Source: a virus
IMG/VR virus record: IMGVR_UViG_3300020469_000153
Span: 1-32,554 of that record
Direction: 5' to 3' (one strand)
DNA: 32,554 nucleotides
Shown here one piece after another: positions 23,887 through 31,986 of this stretch; within the stretch, counting starts at the first letter, position 1, and each line of letters begins with the position of its first letter. The position numbers and the translations under genes are program-made. The notes under the pieces were generated by a model, which saw nothing but the letters and a program-made list of their open reading frames with translations, made no database searches and was not told the DNA's origin.

Positions 23887-24345
23887 ATGTGGTTATATAA
23901 AAAAAATGTTATAGATAGCATTGATAAAATGCCAAAAGATACTTACGGTTTCATTTACCAAGTCACCCATTTACCAACCGATAGAAAGTACATAGGAAAA
24001 AAAGTTCTTTATTTTGAACGTAATGTTCGTTTAGGTAAAAGAGAACTTCAAGCTCTAAAAGAAGAAAGAAAAGCTAAAGGTATAGGCGGAAGAGCACCAT
24101 CTAAGAAAAAAGTGATAAAAGAATCAGATTGGAAGACCTACTTTGGATCTCAGACTGAAATGAAAGATTTAGTAAAAAACGGTAAACAGTCGGACTTTAA
24201 AAGAGAAATTCTTAAATTTGTATACAATAAGAAGCATCTTACATACTTTGAGTGTAAGTATCTATTTATATATGAAGTTTTAGAAAATAATAAAGAGTTT
24301 ATCAACGATAATATTCTTGCCAAATTCTACTCCAGAGATTTTTAA
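23887..24345 (+). CDS. GIY-YIG-like endonuclease-family protein
   Basis: A 152-residue protein with a GIY-YIG-type pattern: GFIYQVT (21-27) followed by KYIGKK (34-39), then a basic linker, DWKTYFGSQ (81-89) and Glu122 in YFECKYLF. The spacing and the W-x-x-Y-x-G-S block match a phage group usually annotated as putative GIY-YIG endonucleases. It could nick or cleave DNA as a stand-alone nuclease; target unknown. It starts three bases after the last structural gene and overlaps the next gene by one base (TAATG). Confidence 0.75.
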   Translation: MWLYKKNVIDSIDKMPKDTYGFIYQVTHLPTDRKYIGKKVLYFERNVRLGKRELQALKEERKAKGIGGRAPSKKKVIKESDWKTYFGSQTEMKDLVKNGKQSDFKREILKFVYNKKHLTYFECKYLFIYEVLENNKEFINDNILAKFYSRDF

Positions 24346-25257: not shown

Positions 25258-26184
25258 ATGCAGGACTACTCAATTTTATTAGGGGCGCTTGAAAACGTCC
25301 TTGGCAAAAGCCATAAAAGAGCTAGGGATAATTATGCCTTTCACTGTCCTTTCTGTAACCATAAGAAAATGAAGCTTGAGATAAAGCTAGGTACTACCGA
25401 AGATGGTAAAAATCCTTGGGAGTGTTGGGTATGTCGTACCCGCGGTCGAACTATTAAGTCCCTTCTATATCAACTTAAGCTACCTAAAGAACAAGCAGTA
25501 GAAGTACTAAAATATATTCATAAAGGTACGGATAGTTATTACCGAGTCGAAGAAAGTGTTACTCTACCTGAAGAGTTTCGATCTATAAATGAGCTTTCTC
25601 CTACATCTATTATGGGCCAGAAGCTAAGAAGGTATTTAAATAGAAGAGGTATATCTGACTTAGACATACTACGGTATAATATTGGCTTTTGTGATAAAGG
25701 TGAATATGCCGGCCGAATAGTTATACCTTCCTACGACGAGAATAATAATTTAAACTTTTTTGTCGCCCGTACCTATCAAGATGATTGGATGAAATATAAG
25801 AACCCAGAAGCTTCAAAAGATATAGTAGCTTTCGAAAATCAAGTTAACTGGTCCAAGCCAATAGTACTTGTTGAAGGAGTATTTGACGCTATGGCCGTAC
25901 GTAGAAATGCAATACCTATCCTCGGTAAAAGTTTACCACAAGCTCTATTGAAGAAAATTGTGTCTGCCGGTAGCGAAGACATATACATAGCGTTAGATGG
26001 AGATGCTAGGAAACAAGCTCTCTCATATTCTGAGCAATTGCTTAACATGGGTAAGAACGTTTACCTGGTCGAACTCAAAGATAAAGACCCAAGCGAGATG
26101 GGCTTTACCGGTTTTACTAACTTAATACAACAAGCTCAAAGACTTGATCTCTCTTTGCTCTTAAAATATAAAATGTCATTATGA
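25258..26184 (+). CDS. DnaG-type DNA primase
   Basis: A 308-residue primase with the zinc-binding domain at the N-terminus (His29, Cys30, Cys33 in CPFC; Cys56, Cys59 in CWVC) and a TOPRIM domain near residues 200-275: Glu206 in VEGVFDA and Asp247-x-Asp249 in ALDGDA, which bind catalytic metals. GRIVIPSYD (152-160) is the conserved strand before TOPRIM. It makes RNA primers for lagging-strand synthesis. It is shorter than bacterial DnaG because no helicase-binding C-terminal domain is present. A 53-base gap separates it from the cupin-like gene, and it overlaps the nuclease gene by four bases. Confidence 0.9.
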   Translation: MQDYSILLGALENVLGKSHKRARDNYAFHCPFCNHKKMKLEIKLGTTEDGKNPWECWVCRTRGRTIKSLLYQLKLPKEQAVEVLKYIHKGTDSYYRVEESVTLPEEFRSINELSPTSIMGQKLRRYLNRRGISDLDILRYNIGFCDKGEYAGRIVIPSYDENNNLNFFVARTYQDDWMKYKNPEASKDIVAFENQVNWSKPIVLVEGVFDAMAVRRNAIPILGKSLPQALLKKIVSAGSEDIYIALDGDARKQALSYSEQLLNMGKNVYLVELKDKDPSEMGFTGFTNLIQQAQRLDLSLLLKYKMSL

Positions 26185-26963
26185 TAAATGTAGGAACGAA
26201 CGTCCTAAAAGAACATAGTAAAAAACGTCTCCAGTTTGACGGGGAACTTAAACAAATTAATTTTTTAGATAGAAGAGTATATCAGAGAGGAGAAGGAGTA
26301 TACTACCCCTCCGTTACTACCATTCTCCAGTATATGCCTAAGAATAAGTTCTTTGAAATGTGGCTTAAAGATGTAGGGCATAATGCCGACTTAATCATGA
26401 GACGGGCAGGAAAAGAAGGCACTCAAGTACATGAAGCTATAGAGACTTTACTTGACGGTGAAGAACTTCACTGGATGGATGACTACGGTAATGCCAAGTA
26501 TAATGAAAAAGTCTGGGAGATGATAAACAAGTTTGTAGACTTCTGGACTACCTGTAAACCGGAATTAATTTCTACGGAAGAGTTTGTATATTCCGATGAA
26601 TATAGATATGCTGGTACAGCTGACTTGGTATGTAAACTTGACGGAGAAGTTTGGTTAATAGATTTTAAAACTTCTAACTCTCTACACAAGTCTTATGACC
26701 TGCAGCTTGCCTCTTATGCCAAGGCTCTAAAAGAATCCAAAGGTGTAGAAATTGAAAGAACTGGTATACTTTGGTTAAAATCTTCTAAGAGAGGCCCATC
26801 TAAGCAAAAAGGACGCATTCAGGGCAAAGGCTGGGAACTAAAAATGATAGATGATATAGAAGAAAACTTTGAGCTCTTTCAACTTATACGTAAACTATAC
26901 AACCTTGAGAACCCCGATACTGAGCCTATTTATACTAAATACAGTACAGTCCTCAAACTATGA
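26181..26963 (+). CDS. PD-(D/E)XK nuclease, RecB/Cas4-like
   Basis: A 260-residue RecB-type nuclease. The catalytic set is complete: His84 (GTQVHEAIE), Asp148 in GTADLV, Asp161-Phe-Lys163 in LIDFKTS and Gln175 in QLASYAKAL. Members degrade DNA ends or act as Cas4/Dna2-like exonucleases. The N-terminal VYYPSVTTILQYMP motif is typical of phage RecB-like exonucleases. It overlaps the primase by ATGA and the kinase by ATGA, so it belongs to the replication-repair operon and could process DNA ends during replication or recombination. Confidence 0.85.
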   Translation: MINVGTNVLKEHSKKRLQFDGELKQINFLDRRVYQRGEGVYYPSVTTILQYMPKNKFFEMWLKDVGHNADLIMRRAGKEGTQVHEAIETLLDGEELHWMDDYGNAKYNEKVWEMINKFVDFWTTCKPELISTEEFVYSDEYRYAGTADLVCKLDGEVWLIDFKTSNSLHKSYDLQLASYAKALKESKGVEIERTGILWLKSSKRGPSKQKGRIQGKGWELKMIDDIEENFELFQLIRKLYNLENPDTEPIYTKYSTVLKL

Positions 26964-27892
26964 AATTAAGTCAAATACTTTTAGAAGAAAACGGAAGACC
27001 CAAAGCCTTGATCATGGCAGGTGGAGCCGGCGCCGGTAAATCCTATATACTTAGTAAGATTGACACTAGAGGTACTACTCAGTATAATCCTGATAAGTAC
27101 GTAGAAGATCCCAAAAGTCCAATGTTCAACAACTTAGGTGCAGCAGCTCCTATGGTAAAAAAAGATGTAATTGCAGCTGTAGAAGCTAAAGAGTCGTTTA
27201 TTTGGGATACTACTGGTAGAGACATAGGCATTATAGGAGATATGAAAGAGGAAGGGTACGATGTTTTTGTTGTGATGGTTTATACTCATCCCATTATTTC
27301 ATTTATTTCAAACTTTGAACGTTCACGTGCCGTACCTAAATCAGCTGTATTTTCTACTTGGCAACAAGCGTATGACCTAGTTGATAACTATAGAGATTTG
27401 CTTGGTAAGAATTTTATACTTGTATCTAATCTACGAGGTGGAGAGTACGAAAAACAAATTAAAGATTTTAATAAGGCAGCAGAAAAAAAGGGTGCAGGTA
27501 TCTTACAGTATTTGGATACTATGATAGCTAAGGATCCTCAAAAGTATAAGACAACTTTCTCAAAAGACTTTGACATAACAGATCCAGAAGCACTTGAAGC
27601 ATACAGTACCGAAGTAGAAGGTCTTAAGTTTGACGCAGATGATGAATCTATGGTTAAACAACTAAAAAGACATTTTATGAAGTCGTGGGATAAAAAAGGT
27701 CAAGGTCCTGGTCGTAAGTCGATAGAAACTAAAATTAAAAGTATAGAAAGAACTAGAGATAACGCTGCTGCAAAACATGAGAAGATAATGGATGAGATAG
27801 CTAAAATGGTTCTAAATCCTAAATTTAATAAAATGCTTGATGCAGAACCACAATCAGAAGCTATTTTTAAAGCTAATCAATTTTTAAAGTAA
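26960..27892 (+). CDS. P-loop kinase, zeta-toxin/PNK-like
   Basis: A 310-residue protein with a Walker A motif GGAGAGKS (21-28), preceded by ALIMA, and downstream QYNPDKYVED and FIWDTTGRD strands in the places where zeta-toxin and polynucleotide-kinase-type phosphotransferases have their acceptor-binding and catalytic Asp residues. The C-terminal third is a separate helical region rich in Lys, Glu and Asp. It could phosphorylate a nucleotide, sugar nucleotide or nucleic-acid end. Neither toxin nor repair role is demonstrated. It overlaps both neighbours (ATGA, TAATG), placing it in a unit with a nucleotidyltransferase and a HAD phosphatase. Confidence 0.75.
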   Translation: MKLSQILLEENGRPKALIMAGGAGAGKSYILSKIDTRGTTQYNPDKYVEDPKSPMFNNLGAAAPMVKKDVIAAVEAKESFIWDTTGRDIGIIGDMKEEGYDVFVVMVYTHPIISFISNFERSRAVPKSAVFSTWQQAYDLVDNYRDLLGKNFILVSNLRGGEYEKQIKDFNKAAEKKGAGILQYLDTMIAKDPQKYKTTFSKDFDITDPEALEAYSTEVEGLKFDADDESMVKQLKRHFMKSWDKKGQGPGRKSIETKIKSIERTRDNAAAKHEKIMDEIAKMVLNPKFNKMLDAEPQSEAIFKANQFLK

Positions 27893-29106
27893 TGGCAATA
27901 GCAATTTTTCCGGGAGCTTTTAAACCACCTACTAAAGGGCACTTTTTAGCCGTCAAGGAACTTGCTACGAATACATTTAAAGCTGCTAAATGGGACTCCG
28001 ATCAAACAGGAAAGATTACTCCCGGTACTTTACGATCAAAAAAAGCTGATGATAAAGTAGATACAGTAGTAGTCATTATCTCTAATAAAGCTAGAAACGG
28101 TATTTCGGCTGAAGACTCTCTGAAGATTTGGAATATTTACAGTAAGTATTTACCCGGAAACGTAGATATTATAATTAGCCCTGATGCCGATCCTATTCGA
28201 ACGGCTTTAAAAATGGTAAAAGATAATCCTGATAAACAATTTATTAATACCGTATACCTAAGAACTGAAAAAGACTACCCAGATCTATCTAGAATTAAGA
28301 CCTTTGAAAAGTACCCTAACTCTAAAGGATTAGCACTTAAATCTGAATTAGAAGGTGTTAGAGCAACGGATTTAAGAAAAGCAGTAGTATCTAATAGTTT
28401 TGACCTATTTAAACAATATATACCCGAGGAAGTTTCTGAAGAAGAAGCACAATTAATATTCAATATGGTAAGAGAGACAGTTAAAGCGGAACAAAATATG
28501 TATGAAGAGATGGGAAATCTCTTTGAGAATATATTTACAGTTGAAGAAACAGTAAAAGAAGCAAGCTCGGGAACCCCAATCTCAGCCCGTGGCACAGTCT
28601 CGTCAGCCGATAGACAAAAGCTTACTGTTGCTTACCATAGAGTAGTCAGTACCTTAGGTGATAATTTTTACGATATTAAGTTTAATCAAGATCATATCAG
28701 AATACAGCTACCTAACGAGGATCAAAAAATAGGCTTTGATTATACACCTTTTATGGGATCTATTTTAGAGTATATGATAGACGAAGGTATGAATGTATCG
28801 CCACTACCTGAGGTTAAAATTAAGAAAGACCCGGTAGAATCAGCTGACTTTTTTGGCAGAACAGCATTTTATGACCCAAACGTAAACGAGATTACTCTAT
28901 ACGTTGAAGGACGACATCCTAAAGATGTAATGAGATCTTTTGTACACGAGATGATACACCACATTCAAAATATAGAAGGTAGAATAAAGAATATTAATAC
29001 TACTAATGTAAACGAAGATGATGCTTTAGTAGAACTTGAAAAAGAGGCCTACATGCTTGGAAACATGACTTTTCGTAGCTGGGAGGATAAAGTTAAAAAT
29101 GGCTAA
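27892..29106 (+). CDS. Nucleotidyltransferase fused to an HExxH metallopeptidase
   Basis: Two domains in one 404-residue frame. Residues 1-180 look like a nucleotidyltransferase of the NMNAT/cytidylyltransferase superfamily: FPGAFKPPTKGH (6-17) supplies the (H/T)xGH motif, ISNKARNGISAEDSLKIW follows, and GVRATDLRKAV (155-165) stands where the ISSTxxR motif is expected. After a helical linker (180-235), the C-terminal domain ends with SFVHEMIHHIQN (349-360), an HExxH zinc peptidase motif, and Glu381/383/385 in ELEKEAYML as candidate third ligand. Proteolysis of a substrate linked to nucleotide transfer is speculative. The gene overlaps both its neighbours. Confidence 0.75.
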   Translation: MAIAIFPGAFKPPTKGHFLAVKELATNTFKAAKWDSDQTGKITPGTLRSKKADDKVDTVVVIISNKARNGISAEDSLKIWNIYSKYLPGNVDIIISPDADPIRTALKMVKDNPDKQFINTVYLRTEKDYPDLSRIKTFEKYPNSKGLALKSELEGVRATDLRKAVVSNSFDLFKQYIPEEVSEEEAQLIFNMVRETVKAEQNMYEEMGNLFENIFTVEETVKEASSGTPISARGTVSSADRQKLTVAYHRVVSTLGDNFYDIKFNQDHIRIQLPNEDQKIGFDYTPFMGSILEYMIDEGMNVSPLPEVKIKKDPVESADFFGRTAFYDPNVNEITLYVEGRHPKDVMRSFVHEMIHHIQNIEGRIKNINTTNVNEDDALVELEKEAYMLGNMTFRSWEDKVKNG

Positions 29107-29653
29107 AACGTTATTAGAACTTCTAGGCGGGCCTGATCCGTTGAGAGAAATAAAAGAAAAACCGCCATATCAAATATACTGCGACATGGATGGAGTTCTT
29201 TGCGACTTTAGAGGTAGGTTTGAACATTTTACCGGTATGCATCCTAGAGAGTATGAAGATCGACACGGTAAAACTCTCTTCTGGAACCTTATAGATAATG
29301 AAGTAGGACTTGTATTCTGGTCTAAGATGGATTGGACTCCAATGGGTAAAATGCTTTGGCACTTTATTAAACCTTATAGTCCGCAACTTCTTACTTCTCC
29401 CTCCCGTGCTAATGAATCACGTTTAGGTAAAAATATATGGGTTAAAGATCACCTTAACCCTCAACCTAAAGTAAATTTTAGAAGAGCAAAAGAAAAGCAT
29501 GACTTTGCAAATGAAAATGCTATCTTACTAGACGATAGAGAAGATACTATTGAAAGATGGAATAACGCCGGAGGTATAGGAATACACCATCCGGAGAATA
29601 CAACGAACTTGAATCCCATATTAGATAAGTTAAAAGAACTTGGTTATGAGTGA
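29099..29653 (+). CDS. HAD-family phosphatase, 5'-nucleotidase-like
   Basis: A 184-residue HAD-superfamily hydrolase. Motif I is YCDMDGVLCD (27-36), with Asp29 as nucleophile and Asp31 as acid-base; motif II is near LLTSPSR (97-103); a Lys (111 or 131) could be motif III; motif IV is LLDDRED (143-149). The type fits 5'(3')-deoxyribonucleotidases or the phosphatase half of T4 Pnk. With the kinase two genes upstream it could make a split nucleotide or nucleic-acid-end processing pair. It overlaps the fusion gene by eight bases and the next gene by eight. Confidence 0.85.
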   Translation: MAKTLLELLGGPDPLREIKEKPPYQIYCDMDGVLCDFRGRFEHFTGMHPREYEDRHGKTLFWNLIDNEVGLVFWSKMDWTPMGKMLWHFIKPYSPQLLTSPSRANESRLGKNIWVKDHLNPQPKVNFRRAKEKHDFANENAILLDDREDTIERWNNAGGIGIHHPENTTNLNPILDKLKELGYE

Positions 29654-30224
29654 AACTCTACTAAAAAAAGAATTTAAAAAATCAGATGTTGAACGTATTC
29701 GTAATCTCGTAAAGAAAGATTTTACAGCTAAAACTAAAGTAGCATCTGGGTACAAGAAATCTCAAGTCGTCCGTAAAGAAGGAGAAGTATGGGAAGAAGA
29801 CGGACGCTCTTGGACTATTCAGAACGGCCTTAAACAAAATATCACTAAGCTAGATACCGCCAAGAATGCTTATAAAATACCTTTAAGATGCCCTAAATGT
29901 AATGGTTCTATGAGCCATTGGTTGGCTAAAAAGATGTACCGTATACATGGTTTCTGTTTTGACTGTACTGTGGATTACGAAGCCAGTCTTAAAAAAGCCG
30001 GTAAGTATGAAGAGTATGAAAAAGCTATGATGCAGGGTAACGTAAAAGAATTTGCTAGAGATCTTGAGCAGTATATTATAGATAAGCTTGAAGAGACTAG
30101 TGATTTTGTTACCGAACAAGGTGACGTAGAGGATTGGAAAAATGATAGTACTCAACAAAAAGATAGAATTCTTAAAGAATTAGCTAGTTTTACTAAACAA
30201 GTTAATAAGTCCTTACAGAAGTAA
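29646..30224 (+). CDS. Zinc-ribbon protein (192 aa)
   Basis: This 192-residue protein has a zinc-ribbon-like pair, CPKCNG (about residues 80-85) and CFDCT (about 101-105), 20 residues apart, between a basic N-terminal half and a helical acidic C-terminal half. A TTG start at 29640 is possible; ATG 29646 overlaps the preceding stop (ATGAGTGA). Zinc ribbons of this kind bind nucleic acid or proteins. Placement after the kinase-nucleotidyltransferase-phosphatase genes suggests a nucleic-acid function, unproven. Confidence 0.7.
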   Translation: MSETLLKKEFKKSDVERIRNLVKKDFTAKTKVASGYKKSQVVRKEGEVWEEDGRSWTIQNGLKQNITKLDTAKNAYKIPLRCPKCNGSMSHWLAKKMYRIHGFCFDCTVDYEASLKKAGKYEEYEKAMMQGNVKEFARDLEQYIIDKLEETSDFVTEQGDVEDWKNDSTQQKDRILKELASFTKQVNKSLQK

Positions 30225-30587: not shown

Positions 30588-31195
30588 AAAAGACTAAAAA
30601 AATATCACCTGACATGCAAGCTTTTATGAGAGAGCTTATAAAGGAGTCATTACGTGATTGGTTTAAAAAAGAAAAATGGGTTAGAATAACTACCTCAGGT
30701 AATATAGCCGGCCCTTGCGGTACGTCTAAGAATACTAAAAATCCTGATAGATGCTTACCTAAAGCAAAGGCACAATCGTTAACTAAAGCTCAAAGAGCAG
30801 CTACTGCACAGAAAAAAAAGAAAGCAGGTGCTCAAGGAAAAACAGTCGTGAAGAATACAAAGAAAGCAGCAGTCAAAAAAGAAGGCCTTTGGGCTAATAT
30901 AAATGCTAAGAAGAAGGCAGGAAAAAAATCTTCTCATAAAAACTCTAATGCATATAAAGATGCTAAGAAAGCTGGTGCATCATTAGAGAAAACTAAAGAA
31001 GGAGTAACTAAAGAAGATATCAAAAATTTAGTAATAGGTCTCATATACGAAGCTCAAGGTAAGGAAATACTTACTGAAAAAGACGATAGATGTACTAGAA
31101 TAGCTAAACGTAAATATGATACCTGGCCATCTGCTTACGCTTCCGGAGCTGTTGTTAGATGCCGCCGTGGTGATATTTGGAAAAATGAAAAATGA
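30584..31195 (+). CDS. Modular basic protein (203 aa), possible DUF5872-type module
   Basis: A lysine-rich 203-residue protein built from recognisable short modules: an amphipathic helix (MQAFMRELIKESLRDWF), then KWVRITTSGNIAGPCGTSK (31-49) with NPDRCLPKAKAQSL (53-66), which I recall as a DUF5872-like phage motif, then GLWANINAKKKAGKKSSHKN, and a C-terminal DRCTRIAKRKYDTWPSAYASG (168-188) VVRCRRGDIW. Each recurs separately in other phage proteins. High basic content suggests nucleic-acid or virion-core association. The start overlaps the membrane protein gene by ATGA. Confidence 0.65.
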   Translation: MKKTKKISPDMQAFMRELIKESLRDWFKKEKWVRITTSGNIAGPCGTSKNTKNPDRCLPKAKAQSLTKAQRAATAQKKKKAGAQGKTVVKNTKKAAVKKEGLWANINAKKKAGKKSSHKNSNAYKDAKKAGASLEKTKEGVTKEDIKNLVIGLIYEAQGKEILTEKDDRCTRIAKRKYDTWPSAYASGAVVRCRRGDIWKNEK

Positions 31196-31986
31196 AAAAG
31201 TCTGAACTACATAAAATAGTTAGAGAAGTTATCCGTAAAGTAGGAGACGAGTACGCTGTATACCCTAAAAAAGGCGGTAGTAGACTAGGTACCCATAAAA
31301 CTAGAAAAGGTGCCCAAGACCAAATGACCGCTATTCACATAAGTAAATACTCAGAAAACTTAGACCCTTCTTATAAACATGACGGAAAAGCCGCTCCTTA
31401 CGGTTCAGGTTATAGACCTGCAAAAAAAGAAGCAGTAGACAACAAAGACCCACTCCCCCTTAAACCTGAAGAACTTAAAACTTACCTAGCTAGTATAGAC
31501 GGATGGTCGATTAAAAGGGATAAGCTTTACAAAAGGTACAAATTTGAAACTTTCTCTGAAGCGTTAAACTTTATTAATAACATCGCTCCAATGTTGGATA
31601 AAGAGGACCATCATCCAATATTATTTAATTTCTACTCTGTCGTTGATCTCTATTTTTATTCTGGATTTGCAGACAATAAAATAACTTCTTTAGATTTTGA
31701 GGTAGCAAAAAAAGTAGACGAGATACATGAAGAAAGTACTTTAAATGAATTAAAATGCAAATATGGTCAATACTTCTGTCCTCACGATAAAGTATATAAG
31801 TGTAGAAAAAGTCCTAAAAAAACTAGATCTGAAGACGTTCATAAACCAATGAACCCAGGTATATTAAAAAAAAGATTAGGTAAATTATCTTGCTCAAAAG
31901 TAAGAGCTGAAAGAGCTAAGTTAAAAGATAAAGGGACTACATACGCAAAAGCTTTACAACGTTACCTTAATTATCATTGTCAATGA
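31192..31986 (+). CDS. Fusion protein with pterin-carbinolamine-dehydratase-like domain
   Basis: A three-part protein of 264 residues. Residues 1-58 hold a phage module (KKSELHKIVREVIRKV; YPKKGGSRLGTHKTRKGAQDQ). Residues 88-180 resemble pterin-4a-carbinolamine dehydratase (PCD/DCoH): Trp105, HHP (140-142), YSVVDLYFYSG and ITSLDFEVAKKVDEI. PCD recycles the oxidised pterin cofactor of aromatic amino acid hydroxylases. The first two active-site histidines (140, 141) are present, but the third, in the usual Thr-His before Gly-Leu-Thr, is missing. Residues 186-264 hold a cysteine-bearing module (YGQYFCPHDKVYKCRK, NPGILKKRLGKLSCSK). It overlaps both neighbours by ATGA. Confidence 0.7.
   Translation: MKKSELHKIVREVIRKVGDEYAVYPKKGGSRLGTHKTRKGAQDQMTAIHISKYSENLDPSYKHDGKAAPYGSGYRPAKKEAVDNKDPLPLKPEELKTYLASIDGWSIKRDKLYKRYKFETFSEALNFINNIAPMLDKEDHHPILFNFYSVVDLYFYSGFADNKITSLDFEVAKKVDEIHEESTLNELKCKYGQYFCPHDKVYKCRKSPKKTRSEDVHKPMNPGILKKRLGKLSCSKVRAERAKLKDKGTTYAKALQRYLNYHCQ

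What the first reader, a model, noticed from the sequence alone, without database searches (positions are those of the whole stretch)
26960..29653. Kinase, nucleotidyltransferase-peptidase fusion and HAD phosphatase in one coupled cassette
Three genes overlapping by 1-8 bases combine a P-loop kinase, an NMNAT-type nucleotidyltransferase with a C-terminal HExxH peptidase, and a HAD phosphatase. Kinase, phosphatase and nucleotidyl transfer are the activities of end-repair or nucleotide/NAD salvage pathways, and the peptidase fusion is unexpected. The set could rebuild or edit a nucleotide cofactor or nucleic acid ends, perhaps against a host defence that depletes them.
Basis: inference. Interest (0 to 1): 0.65.

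Follow-up and report, generated by a model that had tools for sequence, protein, structure and literature searches.

The report
Phage enzyme cassette with capsid-targeting tags
Marine phages related to T4 carry a conserved set of three adjacent genes (a kinase, a nucleotidyltransferase joined to a protease-like domain, and a phosphatase), and two of the three proteins begin with a short tag like the one T4 uses to load proteins into its head, which suggests that the enzymes are injected into the host together with the viral DNA.

Summary
Three overlapping genes encode a PNK/zeta-fold kinase (KIN), a CoaD/NMNAT-fold nucleotidyltransferase fused to an HExxH zincin (NTP), and an NT5C-like HAD phosphatase; their catalytic residues are conserved. 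The set is not a chance cluster. NTP lies beside KIN in 64/64 testable loci and upstream of HAD in 72/73. In one clade KIN is replaced by two polymerase-beta-type nucleotidyltransferases. The pelagiphage HTVC008M carries kinase, nucleotidyltransferase and HAD at one locus.

KIN starts with M(I)KLxxLILE, its final E invariant in 32/32 homologues. The same leader heads unrelated neighbours, including a phage superoxide dismutase, and resembles T4 capsid-targeting peptides (gp24, Alt, IPII/IPIII). Leaders cluster near the head genes, which include a gp21-type protease. A cyanophage homologue of the NTP nucleotidyltransferase, S-SCSM1 ORF91, was found in virions by mass spectrometry and starts MKSFLQFLKEAA.

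Best reading: the enzymes are packaged in the head, trimmed by the prohead protease and ejected with the DNA. Their substrate is open: RNA ends (some NTP fusions contain a CCA-adding domain) or NAD/CoA-type cofactors. Packaging of these particular proteins is inferred, not shown.

The parts
26960..27892 (+). KIN: P-loop kinase of the PNK/zeta-toxin fold, 310 aa
   Evidence: (Zeta_toxin 39.3 bits); Walker A G21-G24-G26-K27, D45, W82-D83-T84-T85, R121 and R123 invariant in 32 homologues
26960..26986 (+). KIN leader MKLSQILLE, capsid-targeting-like, ends in LxE
   Evidence: E9 invariant 32/32, followed by a variable stretch; pLDDT 40 for residues 1-10; strict motif in 95% of 198 kinases against about 1% internally
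27892..29106 (+). NTP: nucleotidyltransferase-zincin fusion, 404 aa
27892..28500 (+). NTP nucleotidyltransferase domain (about residues 1-203); TKGH motif at 27931-27942, RATDLR region about 28360-28377
   Evidence: VIA Z 15.8 to CoaD 6b7b; hhalign 95.9%, E 5.5e-9 to cyanophage cytidyltransferases
28741..29103 (+). NTP zincin domain; HEMIH at 28945-28959, putative third ligand in EKEAY (E383/E385)
   Evidence: H352, E353, H356, H357, E383, A386, Y387 invariant in 42 sequences; IrrE-/SprT-like matches in BFVD
29099..29653 (+). HAD: NT5C-like HAD phosphatase, 184 aa, catalytic DMDG at 29183-29194
   Evidence: phrog_2643 E 2.7e-25; D29, D31, T99, K111, D145, D146 invariant in 25 homologues
29099..29149 (+). 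HAD leader MAKTLLELLGGPDPLRE, with LxE
   Evidence: [LIV]xE before the catalytic motif in 101/104 distinct homologues; the window copy lacks the DLLEA form seen in most relatives
25258..26184 (+). DnaG-type primase, first gene of the conserved block
   Evidence: phrog_47 E 7e-45; conserved upstream of the cassette
26181..26963 (+). PD-(D/E)XK exonuclease, overlaps KIN by 4 bases
   Evidence: phrog_298 E 1e-44, PDDEXK_1; conserved neighbour
29646..30224 (+). zinc-ribbon-like protein of unknown function, conserved directly downstream of HAD
   Evidence: 75/75 testable HAD loci

Best explanation
The three genes belong to a block of enzymes, encoded beside the head genes of T4-like marine phages, whose products are loaded into the prohead by short N-terminal capsid-targeting leaders. 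A gp21-type protease would cut the leader after [LIV]xE, and the enzymes would be ejected into the host with the DNA, acting at once on nucleotides or on nucleic-acid (most likely RNA) ends. Shown: the genes, folds, conserved active sites, conserved linkage, leaders, leader clustering near head genes, a protease gene in relatives, and homology of the NTP nucleotidyltransferase to a protein found in cyanophage virions. Inferred: packaging of KIN, NTP and HAD themselves, leader cleavage, ejection, and substrate. My estimates: packaging of KIN and HAD about 0.65; substrate RNA ends about 0.4, NAD/CoA-type cofactors about 0.3.
For: KIN leader in 95% of 198 kinases, E9 invariant 32/32, disordered in the model. 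Same leader on unrelated proteins, including a phage SOD whose ordinary fold begins at residue 14. T4 gp24 MAKINELLRES, Alt MELITELFDED and IPII/IPIII MKTYQEFIAEA have the same shape; T4 gp24 loses 10 N-terminal residues and Alt and the IPs lose short N-terminal peptides to gp21 (PMC9958956). Leaders in 10/31 genes of the head-proximal region against 7/187 elsewhere in phage immuto, p = 8e-6; 7/36 against 6/195, p = 0.001, in a kinase-type genome. Head maturation protease in immuto (phrog_207 E 6e-53) and in 5/6 large related contigs. Distant NTPs carry the leader themselves. S-SCSM1 ORF91, found in virions (PMC9602691), is 40% identical over full length to ACG-2014d gp153 and starts MKSFLQFLKEAA; these cyanophage cytidyltransferases match the window's nucleotidyltransferase domain. 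Kinases and cytidylyltransferases are reported in several cyanophage virions (PMC10665884). RNA-end hint: CCA-adding and polymerase-beta domains in NTP fusions.
Against: I found no virion proteome for a phage carrying this exact cassette. NTP in the window lineage has no N-terminal leader, and neither do the polymerase-beta proteins that replace KIN. The window HAD has a degenerate first LxE. The cassette sits next to primase and exonuclease genes, as a replication or metabolic set would. The authors of the cyanophage proteomes note that the enzymes could be carry-over in the virion preparations. The leader regex was chosen after seeing the sequences, although the T4 peptides it matches are independent of them, and the region borders are post hoc. 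The window is a fragment without head genes.
Confidence: 0.52

Rival explanations
1. The enzymes stay in the infected cell and form a nucleotide or cofactor salvage pathway (NAD, CoA or deoxynucleotides), perhaps restoring a cofactor depleted by host defence. The leader would be an interaction helix with no packaging role.
For: CoaD/NMNAT fold; NT5C-like 5'-nucleotidase; neighbouring primase and exonuclease; phage NAD+ reconstitution pathways are known (PMC12774641).
Against: No Nampt-, Adps- or Namat-like gene turned up among the window proteins scanned, but most were not scanned against Pfam. The leader is shared by unrelated proteins near head genes. A homologue is virion-associated.
Confidence: 0.22
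2. A virion-delivered or intracellular RNA (tRNA) end-healing kit: kinase for 5'-OH, HAD for 3'-phosphate, a nucleotidyltransferase for rebuilding 3' ends, countering host ribonucleases. This overlaps the best explanation and differs in fixing the substrate.
For: PNK-type fold of KIN; CCA-adding domain in L235 and two polymerase-beta domains in L224; a KWDG (ligase-like) motif in DUF6267 proteins beside the cyanophage and pelagiphage homologues.
Against: The HAD is closer to 5'-deoxynucleotidases than to PNK phosphatases (2.7e-25 against 2.5e-3). No ligase was seen in the window. The CCA domain is rare. The KxDG motif alone is no proof of a ligase.
Confidence: 0.3
3. The proteins are head-assembly factors: the zincin and nucleotidyltransferase domains act in, or are structural parts of, the prohead core and are not delivered effectors.
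For: Adjacency to head genes; leaders like that of the MCP (MCP starts MEINNLLES); extra zincins recur in the locus.
Against: Active sites are conserved in all three enzymes, and a gp21-type maturation protease is already present.
Confidence: 0.12
4. KIN is a zeta-type toxin, with the neighbouring genes acting as its control.
For: Zeta_toxin Pfam match above the gathering score; zeta toxin is the top Foldseek match.
Against: No epsilon-like antitoxin was noticed next to it; the cassette is conserved in T4-like phages; PNK structures fit better in VIA.
Confidence: 0.05

Closest known systems
T4 internal proteins IPI-III and Alt with the capsid-targeting sequence (PMC3012670, PMC9958956)
   Same: Short N-terminal hydrophobic leader, usually ending in xE, cleaved by the gp21 protease; diverse cargo; genome encodes a gp21-type protease
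   Different: Different leader sequence (MIKLxxLILE); cargo are kinase, phosphatase and other enzymes arranged as a conserved block beside the head genes; packaging not yet shown
Cyanophage virion-associated NMNAT/cytidylyltransferase (S-SCSM1 ORF91, phrog_395 type; PMC9602691)
   Same: Homologous nucleotidyltransferase domain (hhalign 95.9%); leader at its N-terminus
   Different: No zincin fusion as in the window; neighbours are DUF6267 and other virion proteins, not kinase and HAD
Pelagibacter phage HTVC008M gp129-gp130-gp134
   Same: Kinase overlapping a cytidyltransferase by 4 bases, HAD deoxyribonucleotidase further downstream
   Different: Cytidyltransferase fused to DUF5824, not to the HEMIHH zincin; three genes between it and the HAD
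T4 Pnkp and RNA repair
   Same: P-loop kinase plus HAD phosphatase activities
   Different: Separate genes; HAD is of the NT5C type; no ligase in the cassette
NARP1/NARP2 NAD+ reconstitution pathways
   Same: Adenylyltransferase-fold enzyme in a phage
   Different: Partner enzymes of those pathways not seen among the proteins scanned; substrate unknown

Membership tests
T4-type capsid-targeted internal (ejected) proteins | about 10-aa N-terminal leader ending in a gp21-type site (LxE/IxE) | tested here: met
   KIN: E9 invariant 32/32 and motif in 95% of 198; HAD: [LIV]xE in 101/104
T4-type capsid-targeted internal (ejected) proteins | leader on NTP itself | tested here: not met
   window NTP starts directly with the nucleotidyltransferase; leader present only in distant NTPs
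T4-type capsid-targeted internal (ejected) proteins | gp21-type prohead protease in the genome | tested here: met
   immuto phrog_207 E 6e-53; 5/6 large related contigs; the window itself is a fragment
T4-type capsid-targeted internal (ejected) proteins | presence in purified virions | not testable with these tools
   only for the homologue S-SCSM1 ORF91, from the literature (PMC9602691)
Phage cytidyltransferase family phrog_395 | profile match and HxGH-type nucleotidyltransferase | tested here: met
   E 1.2e-8 over residues 153-208; hhalign E 5.5e-9 to phrog_395-type cyanophage proteins
NMNAT / CoaD | nucleotidyltransferase fold with [TH]xGH and second [ST]xxxR motif | tested here: met
   Z 15.8 CoaD, Z 13.1 NMNAT; TKGH, RATDLR
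NMNAT / CoaD | activity on NMN or phosphopantetheine | not testable with these tools
   needs an enzyme assay
Zeta toxin | Pfam Zeta_toxin above gathering score | tested here: met
   39.3 against 22.3 bits
Zeta toxin | paired epsilon-type antitoxin | not tested
   no dedicated antitoxin search was made
T4 Pnkp | kinase and phosphatase in one polypeptide, phosphatase of PNK type | tested here: not met
   separate ORFs; HAD matches phrog_2643 far better than phrog_415 PNK
NARP NAD+ reconstitution | Adps plus Namat, or Nampt plus NMNAT | tested here: inconclusive
   no such partner among the window proteins scanned; the window is a fragment

The most novel reading that the evidence does not exclude
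Flavobacterial, pelagic and cyanobacterial T4-like phages share a virion-delivered RNA-end/nucleotide repair kit whose parts are exchangeable (PNK-like kinase, polymerase-beta or CCA-adding nucleotidyltransferase, ligase-like DUF6267, HAD phosphatase, zincin). The parts are tagged for the head by a common leader and injected at time zero to undo host RNA- or cofactor-cleaving defences.
Probability: 0.2. Interest if true: 0.85.

Novelty: new variant of a known kind. Interest (0 to 1): 0.6.

Why it matters
If true, one sequence signature (the leader) would let anyone read the injected-protein complement of T4-like phages of marine Bacteroidetes directly from their genomes, and would turn a group of 'auxiliary metabolic' enzymes into candidate first-minute effectors. 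It would tie scattered reports of kinases and NMNAT-like proteins in cyanophage virions to a conserved locus and a targeting mechanism, and it makes the question of what these phages inject testable.

Tried and rejected
PDB sequence search with NTP: nothing significant. PDB profile searches with KIN and HAD: only borderline PezT and 5'-nucleotidase hits. Pfam and PHROG on the immuto polymerase-beta proteins and on the extra C-terminal zincin of NTP: weak or nothing. DUF6744 and PipA hits of NTP lie below their cut-offs. The zincin domain was not covered by the VIA table, so nothing is claimed about its fold beyond the HExxH motif and the BFVD matches. The 'NAD synthetase' label of window 23887-24345, which would have suggested an NAD theme, was rejected: it is a GIY-YIG domain (SegE_GIY-YIG E 3.7e-27). 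Literature searches for cytitidyltransferase with virion, and for immuto, gave no direct hit on this cassette. Searching bacterial genomes for NTP found only five contigs, all in metagenome-assembled genomes. PMC3037559 reports a virion 'citidylyltransferase' T4-GC190, but cyanophages have two genes of that name (ACG-2014d gp153 = phrog_395, gp154 = phrog_764, which showed no phrog_395 match) and I could not tell which is meant, so the argument rests on S-SCSM1 ORF91 instead. Searches were input errors.
Full report
Observation. The three ORFs are present at the stated coordinates and overlap by 1 and 8 bases. They are part of a longer coupled run that starts with a primase and a PD-(D/E)XK exonuclease and continues into a Zn-ribbon-like protein. 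The window is a 32.5-kb virus record, a fragment.

Domains. KIN matches Pfam Zeta_toxin above the gathering score. Its model aligns best to Clostridium thermocellum polynucleotide kinase (Z 12.4), with PSTK close behind and zeta toxin at Z 9.8. NTP residues 1-201 have the CoaD/NMNAT fold (Z 15.8 and 13.1), and the C-terminal 120 residues carry HEMIHH, with matches to predicted phage IrrE-/SprT-type proteins. HAD is an NT5C-like HAD phosphatase. Catalytic residues are invariant in 42, 32 and 25 homologues, which speaks against a purely structural role.

Linkage. IMG/VR scans seeded separately with NTP, KIN and HAD give the order primase-exonuclease-[x]-KIN-NTP-[x]-HAD-Zn ribbon almost without exception: NTP follows KIN in 64/64, HAD follows in 63/64, and NTP precedes HAD in 72/73 testable loci. 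Each scan keeps the 80 best matches, so the figures describe relatives, not all phages. In one clade, which includes the cultured Flavobacterium phage immuto, KIN is replaced by two polymerase-beta-type proteins, the second fused to NTP. The polymerase-beta assignment rests on GS..DxD motifs and weak Pfam matches in immuto and on firm ones in L224. NTP is a modular backbone: it gains a second zincin, another HAD, the HAD gene itself (L231), or a CCA-adding domain (L235, E 5e-33 to 6ibp). Pelagibacter phage HTVC008M has kinase, cytidyltransferase (4-base overlap) and HAD in the same order.

The leader. KIN begins M(I)KL-x-x-L-I-L-E. E9 is invariant, the next four positions are variable, and residues 1-10 have pLDDT 40. 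The same peptide heads unrelated proteins nearby, for example MKLSKIILEG (80-member family), MKLINIILEN, and MIKMSDILLEAKG on a superoxide dismutase whose Pfam and PDB matches start at residue 14. That is what a transferable N-terminal tag looks like. T4 proteins known to lose N-terminal peptides to gp21 have the same shape: gp24 MAKINELLRES and Alt MELITELFDED; IPII and IPIII start MKTYQEFIAEA (PMC9958956, PMC3012670, PMC5694885). In immuto a strict form of the motif occurs in 10/31 genes of the head-proximal region against 7/187 elsewhere (Fisher p 8e-6; internal background 1.5%). In a 191-kb kinase-type contig the figures are 7/36 against 6/195 (p 0.001), and the cassette runs on into terminase, portal, protease, scaffold and MCP genes, identified by similarity of order and sequence to immuto, the MCP starting MEINNLLES. 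Caveat: motif and region borders were set after looking at the data. A T4-type head maturation protease is present in immuto and in 5/6 large related contigs.

Virion evidence from relatives. The window's nucleotidyltransferase domain is homologous to the cyanophage cytidyltransferases (hhalign 95.9%, E 5.5e-9; tblastn E 8e-4). These start MKKFSDFLSEAA or VKSFGQFLTEAV, close to the T4 sequence. One of them, S-SCSM1 ORF91, was detected in virions by mass spectrometry (PMC9602691), starts MKSFLQFLKEAA and is 40% identical over its full length to ACG-2014d gp153; its record lists neighbouring genes as virion proteins too. PMC10665884 reports kinases and cytidylyltransferases in further cyanophage virions, and its authors note that carry-over is possible.

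Synthesis. The most economical account is a set of head-packaged enzymes ejected with the DNA. For KIN and HAD the argument is leader plus location. For NTP it is homology to a virion protein and leaders on its distant relatives; the window NTP has none, so it would need to be carried by a partner or an internal signal (inference). Substrate: RNA ends are favoured slightly by the company it keeps (PNK-like kinase, polymerase-beta and CCA-adding domains, a KWDG motif in DUF6267); NAD or CoA chemistry is favoured by the fold alone. Neither was tested.

Novelty. Packaged T4 internal proteins and virion-associated cyanophage NMNAT-like proteins are known. I found no description of this kinase/NTP/HAD cassette, its module exchange, or the leader shared with unrelated enzymes; the literature library held only open papers. 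New variant of a known kind.

Noticed in passing
window 23887-24345: Annotated 'NAD synthetase' in PHROGs and in immuto, but Pfam SegE_GIY-YIG matches at 3.7e-27: a GIY-YIG endonuclease-like protein, probably a propagated misannotation.
   Followed up: yes
L115:4720-5367: Phage Fe/Mn superoxide dismutase preceded by the 13-residue leader MIKMSDILLEAKG; a virion-carried SOD would be unusual.
   Followed up: partly
window 31192-31986: Pterin-4a-carbinolamine dehydratase domain (E 4.6e-19) with leader-like N-terminus MKKSELHKIVREVI and a long basic C-terminal tail.
   Followed up: no
L018:4216-5079, also L009, L025, L028, L049: Lipoprotein-like ORF (lipobox) upstream of KIN whose reading frame runs about 200-240 bases into the kinase gene in another frame in many loci; may be real overprinting or just a stop-free frame.
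   Followed up: no
L029:5519-6007, L044, L051, L066: 160-194-aa ORF between KIN and NTP with a leader such as MIKLANILLESEG and no confident family match.
   Followed up: partly
L005:7260-7634 and others: Stand-alone second zincin (VHEYQHYLQS) between NTP and HAD in many loci.
   Followed up: partly
L104:3196-3627 (80-member family): Small protein with leader MKLSKIILEG and a GSGDYGSVYLL..AVKVT stretch resembling a protein-kinase N-lobe; no Pfam match.
   Followed up: no
L242:6716-7723, L241:6819-8051: DUF6267 proteins beside cyanophage and pelagiphage cytidyltransferases contain TKWDGAP/VKWDGAP, a ligase-like KxDG motif.
   Followed up: no
L224:2126-5965: A 1279-aa NTP fusion with two polymerase-beta-type domains (MTPAP-like and NTP_transf_2).
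   Followed up: no
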